NCBI GenBank assembly: GCA_001725325.1 | Contig: MEFY01000002.1 | Location: 372,001-436,000, forward strand | Reading direction: 5' to 3' | DNA length: 64,000 nucleotides | DNA from: Leifsonia sp. SCN 70-46 | GTDB taxonomy: Bacteria > Actinomycetota > Actinomycetes > Actinomycetales > Microbacteriaceae | In this document: one piece after another, positions 24,824 to 29,450 of the stretch | Numbering within the stretch: position 1 is the first letter of the stretch | Layout: every line of letters begins with the position of its first letter | Notes under the pieces: model-generated | What the model was told of the DNA's origin: nothing | Databases searched by the model: none | What the model saw: the letters and a program-made list of their open reading frames with translations, nothing else | Made by a program: the position numbers and the translations under genes

Positions 24824-25879
24824 ATGGTTCCACCGATCCAGCTCCACGATCCGCAGCGCCGCGGATTCGGCTCCGACAACCAGTCGGGCGTGCATCCTGA
24901 GATCCTCGAGGCCATCGCCCGGGCCAACGGCGGGCACGTCGGGGCCTACGGCGACGACCCCTACACGGCCCGGCTGCAGCACGTCATCGCCGAGCGCTTC
25001 GGCGAGGGCGCCGAGGCGTTCCCCGTGCTCACGGGCACGGGCGGCAACGTCATCGCGCTCCAGTCGATGATCCCGCGCTGGGGGGCCGTGCTGTGCGCGT
25101 CGACCGCGCACGTCAACACCGACGAGAACGGCGCCGTCGAGAGCGTCGCCGGCATCAAGCTCCTGCCGGTCGCGACCGACGACGGCAAGCTCAGCCCCGA
25201 GCTCATCCACGCCCAGTCGTGGCGCTGGGGCTCCGTGCACCGCGGAGAGCCGCTCGCCATCACCATCACGCAGACCACCGAGCTCGGCACCGCATACACG
25301 GCCGACGAGATCGCGGCGGTCGCCGACTACGCGCACTCCCACGGCATGGGGCTGCACATCGACGGCGCGCGCCTCTCCAACGCCGCGGCGAGCCTCGGCC
25401 TCACGCTCAAGCAGCTCACGATGGACGTGGGCGCCGACACCGTCTCGTTCGGCGGCACCAAGAACGGCCTGCTGTTCGGCGAGGCGATCGTGTCGCTCAC
25501 CCCCGGCTCGCTGCACGGCTTCTCGCACCTGCGCAAGGCCGACATGCAGCTCGCGAGCAAGATGCGCTTCATCTCCGCCCAGCTCATCGCCCTGCTCGAG
25601 GGCGACCTGTGGCTGCGCTCGGCCTCGCACGCGAACGCCATGGCCTCCCGCCTCGCCGACGGTGTGCGCGGGATGCCCGGGGTCGAGATCACGCAGCGCG
25701 TCGAGGGCAACGCGGTGTTCGCCACCCTGCCGCCCGGCATCTTCGAGAAGCTCAGCCAGGTCGCCTACTTCGACGAGTGGAACGAGTTCACCCACGAGGT
25801 GCGCTGGGTGTGCTCGTTCGACACCACCGAGAGCGACGTCGACACGTTCGTGGCGGCCCTCGGGGCGCTGCTCGCCTAG
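24824..25879 (+). CDS. ltaE: Low-specificity threonine aldolase-like PLP enzyme
   Basis: 351-residue fold-type I PLP enzyme of the beta-eliminating-lyase/threonine aldolase family, expected to split L-threonine or L-allo-threonine to glycine and acetaldehyde. Visible landmarks are SDNQSGVHPEIL, GTGGNVIALQS (phosphate loop), GMGLHIDGARLSNAAASLG (cofactor Asp) and the PLP lysine in SFGGTKNGLLFGE. The start is ATG 24824, six bases after TACCTT. Tail-to-tail CTAG overlap with the FBP gene. Confidence 0.9.
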   Translation: MVPPIQLHDPQRRGFGSDNQSGVHPEILEAIARANGGHVGAYGDDPYTARLQHVIAERFGEGAEAFPVLTGTGGNVIALQSMIPRWGAVLCASTAHVNTDENGAVESVAGIKLLPVATDDGKLSPELIHAQSWRWGSVHRGEPLAITITQTTELGTAYTADEIAAVADYAHSHGMGLHIDGARLSNAAASLGLTLKQLTMDVGADTVSFGGTKNGLLFGEAIVSLTPGSLHGFSHLRKADMQLASKMRFISAQLIALLEGDLWLRSASHANAMASRLADGVRGMPGVEITQRVEGNAVFATLPPGIFEKLSQVAYFDEWNEFTHEVRWVCSFDTTESDVDTFVAALGALLA

Positions 25880-26364
25880 GCCTCCTCGGCGACCGAGAGC
25901 GCGAAGGATGCCGAGCGCTCGCGCAGCATGAGGATGCGCTCCTGGCGCGCCGCCTCCCGGTCGAAGCCGAGGTAGGCGGAGGGCGGCAGCATCCTGACGT
26001 TCTTGGAGCACTGGAAGCTCTCGCACACGAGGGTTCCGAGGGTGTTGCCGTTGCGGCCGCCGTGGCCGGCCCGGCGCGCGCCGTAGAGCACGACGTCGTT
26101 GGGCAGCGTGACGTCCTGGCACCACGAGCACTGCGCGCGCCGCCGCGGGTCGGCGTCGGCCTGCTTGAGCACGACGCCCACGAGCTCGTCGGCGACGGGG
26201 ACGACTATCCAGGCGCGCTTGGCGAACTTGGGGTCGCGCCAGCCGAAGTAGTCGAGGTTGGCCCACGCGATGTCCGCGAGGTCGGGGAGGGCGAGCTCGG
26301 CGAGCTCCTTGCGGGTGGCGTTGACGAAGGACGCGCGGATGACGGCGTCATCGAGGGGAAGCAT
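25876..26364 (-). CDS. FBP-domain protein (FusB/EF-G-binding C-terminal type)
   Basis: 162-residue protein whose C-terminal half is the FBP/treble-clef zinc domain of FusB-type elongation factor G-binding proteins: cysteine pairs CSWC and CESFQC, with LVCESFQCSKNVRML diagnostic. FusB proteins bind EF-G and release it from fusidic-acid-stalled ribosomes; actinobacterial FBP proteins are mostly untested. I start at ATG 26364, with AGGAG seven bases upstream. The 134-base leader upstream looks like an attenuator, as expected for a ribosome-stress gene. Confidence 0.88.
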   Translation of the reverse strand: MLPLDDAVIRASFVNATRKELAELALPDLADIAWANLDYFGWRDPKFAKRAWIVVPVADELVGVVLKQADADPRRRAQCSWCQDVTLPNDVVLYGARRAGHGGRNGNTLGTLVCESFQCSKNVRMLPPSAYLGFDREAARQERILMLRERSASFALSVAEEA

Positions 26365-26407
26365 GGAAGGTCTCCTGAAGTGTTCGGTAAGTGGGTACGA
26401 CTCAGCG

Positions 26408-26430
26408 CCGGGCTCCGCGGGGGAGCCCGG
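26408..26430 (-). repeat. Nine-bp hairpin in the FBP leader
   Basis: Perfect inverted repeat CCGGGCTCC-GCGGG-GGAGCCCGG between two divergent genes, where a terminator for either flanking gene is not expected. It lies between the leader-ORF stop and the FBP ribosome-binding site. Confidence 0.65.
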
Positions 26431-26438
26431 GGGCGGGG

Positions 26439-26498
26439 CTATCTGCCGCCGGCGGACGAGCCGCCGGAGACCTCCACGAACCGGGAAAACAACTTCAC
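26439..26498 (-). CDS. Leaderless short ORF (leader peptide) upstream of the FBP gene
   Basis: 19-codon ORF: GTG start, product MKLFSRFVEVSGGSSAGGR. The GTG lies six bases after TATTCT, fitting the leaderless rule of this window. Codons 7-9 (GAG GTC TCC) contain the sequence complementary to the FBP ribosome-binding site. The stop TAG directly precedes the stable hairpin. Not a recognised family; proposed as a stall-sensing leader. It could be fortuitous. Confidence 0.5.
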   Translation of the reverse strand: MKLFSRFVEVSGGSSAGGR

Positions 26499-26540
26499 CT
26501 CCCCAGAATAGACTTGGCGCGCGCACGAAGGGGGATGTCC

Positions 26541-29450
26541 ATGGGTGGGTTCGCAGCCTTCCTCTTCGGGCTCAAGGTCCAGCAGCCGCTCGAATACCGG
26601 CGGCTCATGCGTATCCGGCGCGGCATCTACACGAAGGTCGCGCCCCTCTCGGCCGAGATCGTGACGTCGCCCGAGCCCATCCCGTTCGACGAGCTCGACC
26701 GCGGCGCGTTCCGGCCCGTGCGCCCCGGGGCGCGCTGGGGCGGCATCTTCGACTGCGCGTGGCTGCGGATCACGGGCGAGGTGCCCCGGGGCGTCGAGGG
26801 CGCGGTGGTCATGCTCGGCGTGCGCGGCGAGGGGCTCGTGCACTCCCCCGAGGGCGAGCTGCTCGACTCGGTGAGCACGGCGTTCCAGCAGGGCGACCTG
26901 CCCCAGAGCGGCGGCGGCCGCTACCGGCCCGTGCCGCACGTCGACACGTCGGGGCTGAGGGTCGAGTTCTTCGCGGACGTCACGTGGAACGGCTGGATCC
27001 TCTACCAGGTGGGCAGGCCCGTGTACCACGGCGCCTACCTCGCGACGAAGGACGAGGAGGCGTACGCCCTCTTCTACGACTACCTCACGCTGCTCGTGCT
27101 CGCGGGCGCCACCGAGGATGCGGCGCTCGAGGCCGAGCTGAGGGCATCCCTGCGGCGTGCCTACGCCGCCCGCGCCGACGTCGCCGCGGCGCGGGGCATC
27201 CTCGCCGAGCAGCTCTCCCAGCCCTCGACGAGCGAGTTCCTCTACAGCGCCGTGGGCCACGGACACCTCGACATGGCGTGGCTGTGGCCGCTGCGCGAGA
27301 CGCGGCGCAAGGCGGCGCGCACGTACATCCGCGCCGTCAACGCCATGGACGCGCGCCCCGACTACGTCTACGGCACGAGCCAGCCGCAGCAGATGGCGTG
27401 GATGAAGCAGCGCCACCCCGCGCTCTTCGACCGGCTGAAGGCCGCGGTCACGAGGGGCCAGCTCGAGATCCAGGGCTCGTTCTGGGTGGAGCCCGACACG
27501 AACCTGCCGTCGGGCGAGTCCCTCGTGCGGCAGGCGGTCGTCGGCCGCCGGTTCCAGCAGCAGGAGTTCGGGCTCACCGACGACCAGCTGCGGCTGTGCT
27601 GGCTGCCCGACACCTTCGGCTACAGCGGCAACCTCCCGCAGCTGCTGCGCAAGAGCGGCATGGACTGGTTCCAGACCACGAAGCTCTCGTGGAACAAGGT
27701 CAACGACTTCCCCAACCGCACCTTCCACTGGGCGGGCATCGACGGGTCGAGCGTGCTCGTGCACATGCCGCCCGAGGGCGACTACAACAGCCGCGGCGCG
27801 GCCGACAACCTCCTGCTGGGCCTCAAGCGCTACCCCGAGAAGCAGCTCAACACGGCCCTGCTCGTCTACGGCTCCGGCGACGGCGGCGGCGGCCCCACCG
27901 AGATCCACCACGAGGTCACGACGCGCGAGCGCTCGCTGCGCGGCCTCCCCCGCGTCGAGTACTCGACGGCCTCCGACTTCTTCCGCGCCCTCGAGAAGCG
28001 CGACATCGCCCACACCCACCACGGCGAGCTCTACCTCGAGACGCACCAGGGCACGTACACGACGCAGGCGCAGATCAAGCGGCACAACCGGTTGGTCGAG
28101 CGGCTCCTGCACGAGGTCGAGGCGCTCGCGGTCGCCGTGGGCGACGACAGCCGTCCCGTGCTCGAGGAGCACTGGCGCGAGGTGCTGCTCAACCAGTTCC
28201 ACGACATCATCCCGGGGTCGTCGATCGCGCGCGTCAACCGCGAGGCCGTGGAGACCTACGAGCGCATCGAGGTGGCGCTCGAGGAGTACCGCCAGGAGCT
28301 GCTCGCACGGCTGCCGCGGTCGGGCGCCTCGGCCCTCAACCTCACGGCCTTCCCGCGCGACGAGGCGGTCAAGGTCGGGGATGCCTGGTTCCGGGCGTCC
28401 GTCGCGCCCTACTCGTCGGCGGCTCTCGCCGCGGAGCCCGCGCACCCCGAGCTCTCCTCCACGCCCGACTCCATCAGCAACGGGATCCTCACCCTCCGCT
28501 TCGGCCCCTCGGGCGAGATCGTGTCGTGCGTCGACGCCTCCGGCACCGAGCACGCCGCAGACGGCCTCAACCGCATGACCCTCCACAAAGACCCGTACGT
28601 GTGGCCGTTCAACGCGTGGGACATCGCCGTCGACTACACGAAGCGCGCGCCGCGCACGCTGCGCATGGCGCACGAGTCGACGACGGTCGACGGGCCCACG
28701 GTCATCCGCACCCAGACGCACCGCTCGGCGGCCGTGACCCTCACGCAGCGCATCGTGCTCGAGGCCGGCAGCGACGTCGTGCGCTTCGACACCGAGGTCG
28801 ACTGGCACGCGAAGCACAGGATGCTGCGGGCCGAGTTCCGGCCCGCGCGCTACTCCGACACCGTGCGGTGCGAGATCCAGTTCGGCCACATCGAGCGCGT
28901 GACGACCGAGAACGACTCCGTCGAGAAGGCGCAGTTCGAGGTGTGCGCGCACAAGTGGCTGGCCGTCGAGGATGCCGCGGGCGGCTTCGCCCTGCTCAAC
29001 AACGCCAAGTACGGGCACCGGGCCAAGAACGGCCTGCTCTCGATCAACCTGCTGCGCGCGCCCACCTATCCGGACAGGACCGCGGACCGCGGCCACCACT
29101 CGTTCAGCTATGCGTTCACGCCGTTCGCGCCCGGCGACCTCGCCAAGGCGGTGCGGGAGGGCTACCGTCTCAACAACCCCCTCGCCCTCGCGGAGGTCTC
29201 GCTCGAGCCCCTCGCCACGGTCGACGACCCGGGCATCGTGCTCGAGACGATCAAGGTGGGCGAGAACGGCGGGACTGTGCTGCGCCTCTACGAGAGCCTC
29301 GGGCGCGAAACGACCACGGCGCTGCGCACGCGCCTGGCGCACGCGACGGCGCGCGAGACCGACCTGCTCGAGCGGCCGACGGGGGTGGCCGACCTCGCCG
29401 CGCTCGCCTTCACCCCGTTCGAGGTCAAGACGATCCTCCTGGAGGGCTGA
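26541..29450 (+). CDS. GH38 alpha-mannosidase
   Basis: 969-residue cytoplasmic glycoside hydrolase family 38 enzyme. After an N-terminal beta domain (about 1-230) comes the catalytic barrel with GHGHLDMAWLWPLRETRR (zinc ligands His/Asp), FWVEPDTNLPSGESLVRQ and LPDTFGYSGNLPQLL, where the nucleophilic Asp is expected. Beta-sandwich domains follow. It removes alpha-mannosyl residues from internalised oligosaccharides. AGGGGG precedes ATG 26541 by six bases; the track starts well upstream. The next gene, a GPH-type symporter overlapping by one base, likely imports the substrate. Confidence 0.93.
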   Translation: MGGFAAFLFGLKVQQPLEYRRLMRIRRGIYTKVAPLSAEIVTSPEPIPFDELDRGAFRPVRPGARWGGIFDCAWLRITGEVPRGVEGAVVMLGVRGEGLVHSPEGELLDSVSTAFQQGDLPQSGGGRYRPVPHVDTSGLRVEFFADVTWNGWILYQVGRPVYHGAYLATKDEEAYALFYDYLTLLVLAGATEDAALEAELRASLRRAYAARADVAAARGILAEQLSQPSTSEFLYSAVGHGHLDMAWLWPLRETRRKAARTYIRAVNAMDARPDYVYGTSQPQQMAWMKQRHPALFDRLKAAVTRGQLEIQGSFWVEPDTNLPSGESLVRQAVVGRRFQQQEFGLTDDQLRLCWLPDTFGYSGNLPQLLRKSGMDWFQTTKLSWNKVNDFPNRTFHWAGIDGSSVLVHMPPEGDYNSRGAADNLLLGLKRYPEKQLNTALLVYGSGDGGGGPTEIHHEVTTRERSLRGLPRVEYSTASDFFRALEKRDIAHTHHGELYLETHQGTYTTQAQIKRHNRLVERLLHEVEALAVAVGDDSRPVLEEHWREVLLNQFHDIIPGSSIARVNREAVETYERIEVALEEYRQELLARLPRSGASALNLTAFPRDEAVKVGDAWFRASVAPYSSAALAAEPAHPELSSTPDSISNGILTLRFGPSGEIVSCVDASGTEHAADGLNRMTLHKDPYVWPFNAWDIAVDYTKRAPRTLRMAHESTTVDGPTVIRTQTHRSAAVTLTQRIVLEAGSDVVRFDTEVDWHAKHRMLRAEFRPARYSDTVRCEIQFGHIERVTTENDSVEKAQFEVCAHKWLAVEDAAGGFALLNNAKYGHRAKNGLLSINLLRAPTYPDRTADRGHHSFSYAFTPFAPGDLAKAVREGYRLNNPLALAEVSLEPLATVDDPGIVLETIKVGENGGTVLRLYESLGRETTTALRTRLAHATARETDLLERPTGVADLAALAFTPFEVKTILLEG

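What the first reader, a model, noticed from the sequence alone, without database searches (positions are those of the whole stretch)
26365..26514. Attenuator-like leader with a leaderless short ORF whose sequence can mask the FBP ribosome-binding site
The FBP gene belongs to the FusB-type EF-G-binding group, a ribosome-rescue family. Its minus-strand leader has an unusual order of elements. TATTCT is followed by exactly six bases and a GTG that opens a 19-codon ORF (MKLFSRFVEVSGGSSAGGR). AGGTCTCC inside that ORF is perfectly complementary to GGAGACCT over the FBP ribosome-binding site. Two strong hairpins lie between, one overlapping the AGGTCTCC arm. This is the layout of translational attenuators that sense ribosome stalling. 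Elements are seen; the mechanism is inferred.
Basis: partly seen in the sequence, partly recalled or inferred. Interest (0 to 1): 0.78.

Follow-up and report, generated by a model that had tools for sequence, protein, structure and literature searches.

The report
Conserved leaderless uORF guarding FBP gene
In front of a bacterial gene for a relative of the FusB fusidic-acid resistance protein lies a tiny reading frame that has been kept in front of the same gene in many actinobacteria, and its first bases repeatedly co-evolve to pair with the start site of that gene, which suggests a switch that turns the gene on when ribosomes are slow.

Summary
The elements exist as described: TATTCT, six bases, a GTG opening a 19-codon ORF, hairpins, and AGGTCTCC complementary to the FBP ribosome-binding site. 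Comparison with about 180 other FBP leaders shows that the short ORF is no accident. It lies before FBP across Microbacteriaceae and in some members of a second actinobacterial order. The TAnnnT-6/7-RTG start is in frame with the conserved 3' module in 92 leaders and out of frame in none. The peptide ends [EG]V[VA]Gx3A[GD]xR-stop; the RNA reads GGRGGU, covarying hairpin, AGA/AGG, stop. No convincing copy was found before other genes, and Rfam has no such family.

The AGGTCTCC/GGAGACCT helix itself is private to this species and borderline against chance. The principle of masking nevertheless holds: the variable first ~27 nt of the uORF are complementary to the FBP initiation region well beyond permuted pairings (p=0.0007; held-out leaders p=0.0002). 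Best reading: a translational attenuator, as described for fusB and toiL, but with a leaderless uORF and a conserved, probably slow, 3' module. That ribosome occupancy unmasks FBP, and that EF-G trouble is the signal, is inferred. A 2025 review says how FusB homologs are regulated is unknown.

The parts
26505..26510 (-). -10-like TATTCT; with a 6-nt spacer it puts the presumed transcript start on the GTG
   Evidence: TAnnnT 6 nt (77 of 93 leaders) or 7 nt (12 of 93) before an ATG/GTG; TSS itself not measured
26439..26498 (-). leaderless-type uORF VKLFSRFVEVSGGSSAGGR*
   Evidence: conserved start, frame and stop in orthologous leaders
26470..26475 (-). GGAGGT, the GGRGGU (Shine-Dalgarno-like) core of the conserved 3' module, codons xxG-GAG-GTC
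   Evidence: GG.GGT invariant in 55 aligned leaders; GGRGGY in 27 of 28 held-out leaders
26449..26467 (-). hairpin P1 (CCGGCGG-ctcgt-CCGCCGG) inside the 3' end of the uORF
   Evidence: 97.9% of cells paired over the 7 core pairs, U-G/U-A/C-G exchange at one pair
26439..26444 (-). AGA codon followed by TAG stop
   Evidence: AGA or AGG in 93 of 93 leaders; 24 of 28 held-out; AGR is 9% of Arg codons in window ORFs
26466..26473 (-). AGGTCTCC, arm of the masking helix in this species
   Evidence: not conserved as such
26492..26497 (-). TGAAGT at the uORF start, complementary to ACTTCA next to the FBP RBS; this species' candidate for the 5'-segment pairing seen in relatives
   Evidence: longest-complement rank p=0.09 for this species alone
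26368..26386 (-). FBP initiation region: CGAACACTTCA then GGAGACCT; complementary to uORF segments
26408..26430 (-). second hairpin CCGGGCTCC-cccgc-GGAGCCCGG; retained by eye with compensatory changes in the three nearest relatives only
26365..26438 (-). C-rich, G-poor spacer between uORF stop and FBP start
   Evidence: C>G skew in 76 of 76 leaders; first 100 nt mean 0.22 against 0.04 in 117 control 5' intergenic regions
25876..26364 (-). FBP gene (162 aa, FBP_C treble-clef zinc finger, FusB/FusC relative)

Best explanation
This is a translational attenuator. The transcript most likely starts on the uORF's GTG. Left alone, the 5' part of the uORF folds back on the FBP initiation region and masks it (in this species AGGTCTCC can do so as well). 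Ribosomes that load on the leaderless start and are slow to clear the uORF keep that segment covered, so FBP is translated. The conserved 3' module (GGRGGU, hairpin P1, rare AGR codon, stop) is probably a built-in slow step that makes occupancy sensitive to translocation, termination or recycling. The output, a FusB relative expected to bind EF-G, would then rise when EF-G works poorly, as on fusidic acid. Shown: the ORF, its conservation and frame, the P1 covariation, the co-evolving complementarity. Inferred: transcript start, translation, masking in the cell, pausing, the signal, and that FBP binds EF-G.
For: uORF conservation: 93 leaders with 77 distinct peptides, plus 28 new ones in 40 held-out leaders. 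Frame: 92 in frame, 0 out of frame; first in-frame stop within two codons of the AGR codon in 85 of 95. P1 covariation. uORF first 27 nt against FBP initiation region: permutation p=0.0007 (35 representatives), dinucleotide shuffles Stouffer -5.3 with flat controls, held-out p=0.0002 with flat controls. Native uORFs leave the RBS less accessible than swapped ones (0.439 against 0.476, p=0.01), and removing the uORF raises it to 0.564. The element is FBP-specific. Precedents: fusB (PMC12493156), toiL (PMC12121999), leaderless RTG initiation (PMC4633059).
Against: No transcript start, ribosome profile or expression data. Individual species seldom reach significance alone (7 of 64 by energy), and some clades show no pairing. 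A ribosome parked only at the stop codon does not raise predicted RBS accessibility (0.458 against 0.439, p=0.60), so the model needs ribosomes on the 5' half of the uORF. The idea for the 5' segment came from the same leaders used, though one search is independent. Many FBP starts have poor Shine-Dalgarno sequences, so what is masked is not always a canonical RBS. Homology to FusC covers only its C-terminal domain.
Confidence: 0.6

Rival explanations
1. Transcription attenuation by Rho. A ribosome that terminates at the uORF stop exposes the C-rich, G-poor spacer as a Rho loading site and FBP is not transcribed; a ribosome that lingers at the module shields it. Could act together with translational masking.
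For: C>G in all 76 leaders downstream of the stop, mean skew 0.22 against 0.04 in controls; C is 53% in the first 10 nt after the stop; the module sits right at the stop, where a slow ribosome would shield the spacer; no intrinsic terminator found in the window leader.
Against: Leaders are related, so the skew p-value is inflated; rut sites cannot be predicted reliably; does not explain the co-evolving uORF/RBS complementarity.
Confidence: 0.2
2. The conserved hairpin module is a protein- or ribosome-binding RNA (for example autoregulation by FBP itself), and the reading frame matters little.
For: RNA-level constraint is strong: GGRGGU, P1 and AGR are kept while E/G, V/A/T and G/D exchange; the element is found only before FBP.
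Against: Start codon, frame and stop are conserved; the seven leaders with a shorter GRG-to-AGR distance are shorter by exactly one codon; class II leaders keep the same frame for GRGGY and hairpin with a mostly Shine-Dalgarno start instead.
Confidence: 0.1
3. The uORF encodes a functional micropeptide.
For: Conserved C-terminal residues EVVG...AG.R.
Against: The N-terminal part varies freely in length and sequence; C-terminal residues that change do so in ways that keep RNA features (GAG/GGG, AGA/AGG).
Confidence: 0.04
4. An ordinary GC-rich leader with a chance ORF and chance complementarity.
For: The AGGTCTCC helix alone is within 6% of shuffles and private to this species.
Against: Conservation, frame test and held-out complementarity test.
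Confidence: 0.03

Closest known systems
fusB leader of S. aureus plasmid pUB101 (translational attenuation; described in review PMC12493156)
   Same: Leader sequence upstream of a FusB-family gene whose translation, when ribosomes stall on it, opens the gene's expression
   Different: Here the uORF is leaderless, chromosomal, in actinobacteria, with a conserved GGRGGU-hairpin-AGR-stop module; FBP lacks the FusB N-terminal domain; inducer untested. No sequence comparison with the fusB leader was made here
E. coli toiL-topAI (PMC12121999)
   Same: uORF bases pair with the downstream Shine-Dalgarno region; stalling within the uORF is proposed to unmask it; linked to Rho termination
   Different: Unrelated genes, sequence and start mode; here the pairing segment is the fast-evolving 5' end and a separate 3' module is conserved
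Leaderless small ORFs upstream of mycobacterial genes (PMC4633059)
   Same: RTG at the transcript start directs translation of small upstream ORFs in actinobacteria
   Different: I saw no mention there of this module or of FBP genes in the passages read
Class II FBP leaders of other Micrococcales families (seen here)
   Same: uORF before FBP with in-frame GRGGY and a hairpin (GGCC-N5-GGCC-UGC)
   Different: Start mostly with a Shine-Dalgarno sequence rather than leaderless; peptide motif [EG][VA]AxxAC; stop lies several codons later

Membership tests
FusB-type EF-G-binding proteins | FBP_C treble-clef zinc-finger domain with four cysteines | tested here: met
   PF16571 E=3.7e-49; C79, C82, C114, C119 invariant in 26 homologues; profile hit to FusC 2yb5 E=6.7e-6; Foldseek 2yb5 E=1.9e-4, probability 1.00
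FusB-type EF-G-binding proteins | N-terminal domain that wedges between EF-G domains (PMC12008383) | tested here: not met
   Profile matches only FusC residues 101-202; the protein is 162 aa against 215. It is therefore called a relative, not a full FusB-type protein
FusB-type EF-G-binding proteins | Binds EF-G and rescues from fusidic acid | not testable with these tools
   Needs biochemistry
Translational attenuators (fusB, toiL, erm type) | Conserved translated uORF upstream of the regulated gene | tested here: met
   Conservation and frame; translation itself inferred
Translational attenuators (fusB, toiL, erm type) | uORF sequence pairs with the downstream initiation region | tested here: met
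   for the family; for this species one strong helix in the MFE fold, private to it
Translational attenuators (fusB, toiL, erm type) | Ribosome stalling in the uORF induces the gene | not testable with these tools
   Needs reporters or ribosome profiling
Leaderless transcripts of actinobacteria | RTG at the 5' end of the mRNA, 6-7 nt after a TAnnnT element | tested here: inconclusive
   Spacing met in 89 of 93 leaders, but no TSS data
Known Rfam leader families | Match to a covariance model | tested here: not met
   No match in 26000-27000 at E<=1 or in 20 loci at gathering score

The most novel reading that the evidence does not exclude
The GGRGGU-hairpin-AGR-stop module is a dedicated sensor of EF-G function: it holds the ribosome until EF-G-dependent translocation or EF-G/RRF recycling succeeds, and the queue behind it opens the start site of an EF-G helper protein, a homeostatic loop not tied to antibiotics.
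Probability: 0.25. Interest if true: 0.85.

Novelty: new variant of a known kind. Interest (0 to 1): 0.7.

Why it matters
A 2025 review states that fusB is controlled by translational attenuation and that how FusB homologs are regulated is unknown (PMC12493156). Here a large chromosomal branch of that family carries a deeply conserved, testable leader. It would be an attenuator that starts with a leaderless ORF, it offers a natural series of co-evolved masking helices, and it points to translation stress as the signal for these housekeeping FBP proteins. The module can be searched for and put into a reporter directly.

Tried and rejected
1) AGGTCTCC/GGAGACCT as the conserved switch: rejected, no excess over shuffles across leaders. 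2) A regulon beyond FBP: the best covariance-model hit outside FBP leaders (G043:C6, E=5.7e-4) lies in a coding region, as do the other weak hits inspected. 3) Known riboswitch or leader family: none in Rfam, no NCBIfam model for the peptides. 4) Sigma-70 consensus promoter and intrinsic terminator scans: nothing, uninformative for this group. 5) Ribosome at the stop codon as the sole unmasking event: folding does not support it. 6) Masking by the uORF 5' end in class II leaders: not significant (p=0.23), whereas their hairpin and post-stop segments were (p=0.0045, 0.002; small set, exploratory). 7) Literature searches for a description of this leader found none in the open-access library.

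Full report
WHAT IS IN THE WINDOW. On the minus strand, TATTCT (26510-26505) is followed by GGGGAG and a GTG at 26498 that opens VKLFSRFVEVSGGSSAGGR* (26498-26439). FBP starts at ATG 26364 and encodes a 162-aa protein. AGGTCTCC (26473-26466) and GGAGACCT (26375-26368) are perfect complements and form the closing helix of the predicted fold, with two hairpins inside. The fold is only modestly better than shuffles (z=-1.70), and the 8-nt match alone occurs in 6% of shuffles.

THE GENE. The protein is a nearly full-length PF16571 match. A profile of 26 homologues finds FusC (2yb5) at E=6.7e-6, covering FusC residues 101-202 only. An AlphaFold2 model (pLDDT 91) has FusC as its only significant PDB match. 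It is therefore a relative of the FusB/FusC C-terminal zinc-finger domain without the N-terminal wedge domain. EF-G binding is an inference from the family; 'ribosome rescue' is further inference.

CONSERVATION OF THE SHORT ORF. FBP leaders were collected from relatives, the family, the order and the phylum. In 93 of 138 leaders of the first set (these include paralogues and a few genomes present in two collections; 77 distinct peptides), a uORF lies upstream, with ATG or GTG 6 or 7 nt after TAnnnT in 89. It ends [EG]V[VA]G-x3-A[GD]xR*. At RNA level: GGRGGU, hairpin P1 (GUCGGCG/CGCCGGC), AGA or AGG, stop. A frame test that did not assume the frame found a TAnnnT-6/7-RTG start in frame in 92 of 95 leaders with the RNA motif and out of frame in none; the first in-frame stop is within two codons of the AGR codon in 85 of 95. 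The GRG-to-AGR distance changes only by a whole codon (86 leaders with 10 codons, 7 with 9). The Arg codon is AGA/AGG in 93 of 93, against 9% of Arg codons in window ORFs; in held-out leaders 24 of 28, so it is not absolute.

RNA STRUCTURE. P1 is 97.9% paired over seven core pairs, with U-G, U-A and C-G exchanged at one pair; the structure outscores its shuffles and the slid controls on pairing and covariation score. An upstream GCCC-NNN-GGGC hairpin (P0) is present in most leaders, but not in the window's genus or in the shortest uORFs. The second hairpin of the window is retained, with compensatory changes by eye, in the three nearest relatives and is not a family-wide feature.

SPECIFICITY AND SPREAD. 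A covariance model finds strong hits almost only before FBP. The best other hit (G043:C6, E=5.7e-4) and the weak hits inspected lie in coding regions. In a family of another order, 7 of 101 genomes have a hit, all before FBP. The second FBP paralogue, including that of this genome, lacks it; its start follows a TetR-like gene end closely. Other Micrococcales families have a different, class II leader: usually a Shine-Dalgarno-led uORF with in-frame GRGGY, GGCC-N5-GGCC hairpin and a UGC codon (27 leaders). Rfam and NCBIfam know neither.

DOES THE uORF MASK THE FBP START? Not by the AGGTCTCC segment in general. A scan of whole uORFs against the initiation region suggested the 5' end. Tested on 35 cluster representatives, the first 27 nt are more complementary to -28..+3 of FBP than permuted partners (p=0.0007); the window just upstream deviates weakly (p=0.03) and the post-stop window in the opposite direction. 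Against dinucleotide-shuffled RBS the combined z is -5.3, with flat controls including the reversed RBS. Because the hypothesis came from the same leaders, 40 further leaders were fetched: 28 had a new uORF, and 21 representatives gave p=0.0002 with flat controls, while the GGRGGU/P1 arm (p=0.27) and the 3' arm (p=0.49) gave nothing. Examples are L008, L060, L071 and L272, where bases at or next to the uORF's own start codon pair just upstream of the FBP start. Native uORFs lower RBS accessibility compared with swapped ones. In this species the same end seems to be reached by AGGTCTCC, with TGAAGT/ACTTCA as a weaker alternative.

MECHANISM. Masking by the uORF 5' segment plus a conserved, probably slow, 3' module fits an attenuator in which ribosome occupancy of the uORF turns FBP on. 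A ribosome only at the stop codon would not unmask the start, so queued or early-stalled ribosomes are needed; this is inference. A C-rich, G-poor spacer follows the stop in all leaders (skew 0.22 against 0.04), so Rho control, alone or in addition, remains open.

PRECEDENT. fusB of S. aureus is under translational attenuation by fusidic-acid-stalled ribosomes, and regulation of its homologs is stated to be unknown (PMC12493156). toiL of E. coli pairs with the topAI Shine-Dalgarno region and is relieved by stalling (PMC12121999). In mycobacteria an RTG at the mRNA 5' end suffices for translation (PMC4633059). The present element would work like these but is a distinct variant. No transcript or protein data were available here.

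Noticed in passing
L204-L230, L011, L012, L014, L020 (leaders of FBP in other Micrococcales families): Class II FBP leader: uORF, usually with a Shine-Dalgarno start, peptide motif [EG][VA]AxxAC, hairpin GGCC-N5-GGCC-UGC; hairpin and post-stop segments complementary to the FBP RBS in a small exploratory test.
   Followed up: partly
G000:C2:1823858-1824307 (L028) and L013-L030: Second FBP paralogue in the same genome and relatives, placed directly after a TetR-like gene end with a TAGGTAGG..T element close to its start and no uORF; Streptomyces-like FBP genes lie next to palindromic TetR-type operators.
   Followed up: partly
L088, L090, L091, L093, L103, L111, L121: One clade has lost the stop after the AGR codon; the uORF runs on to 36 codons and ends ...SPTR*.
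   Followed up: no
L239, L241, L265, L270: Held-out leaders whose uORF keeps GGAGGT but lacks the AGR codon before the stop.
   Followed up: no
window 25876-25879: FBP and the convergent Beta_elim_lyase gene (PF01212, threonine-aldolase-like) overlap by four bases at their stop codons.
   Followed up: no
window about 26540-29450: Divergent GH38 alpha-mannosidase gene whose start lies close upstream of the FBP promoter-like element.
   Followed up: no
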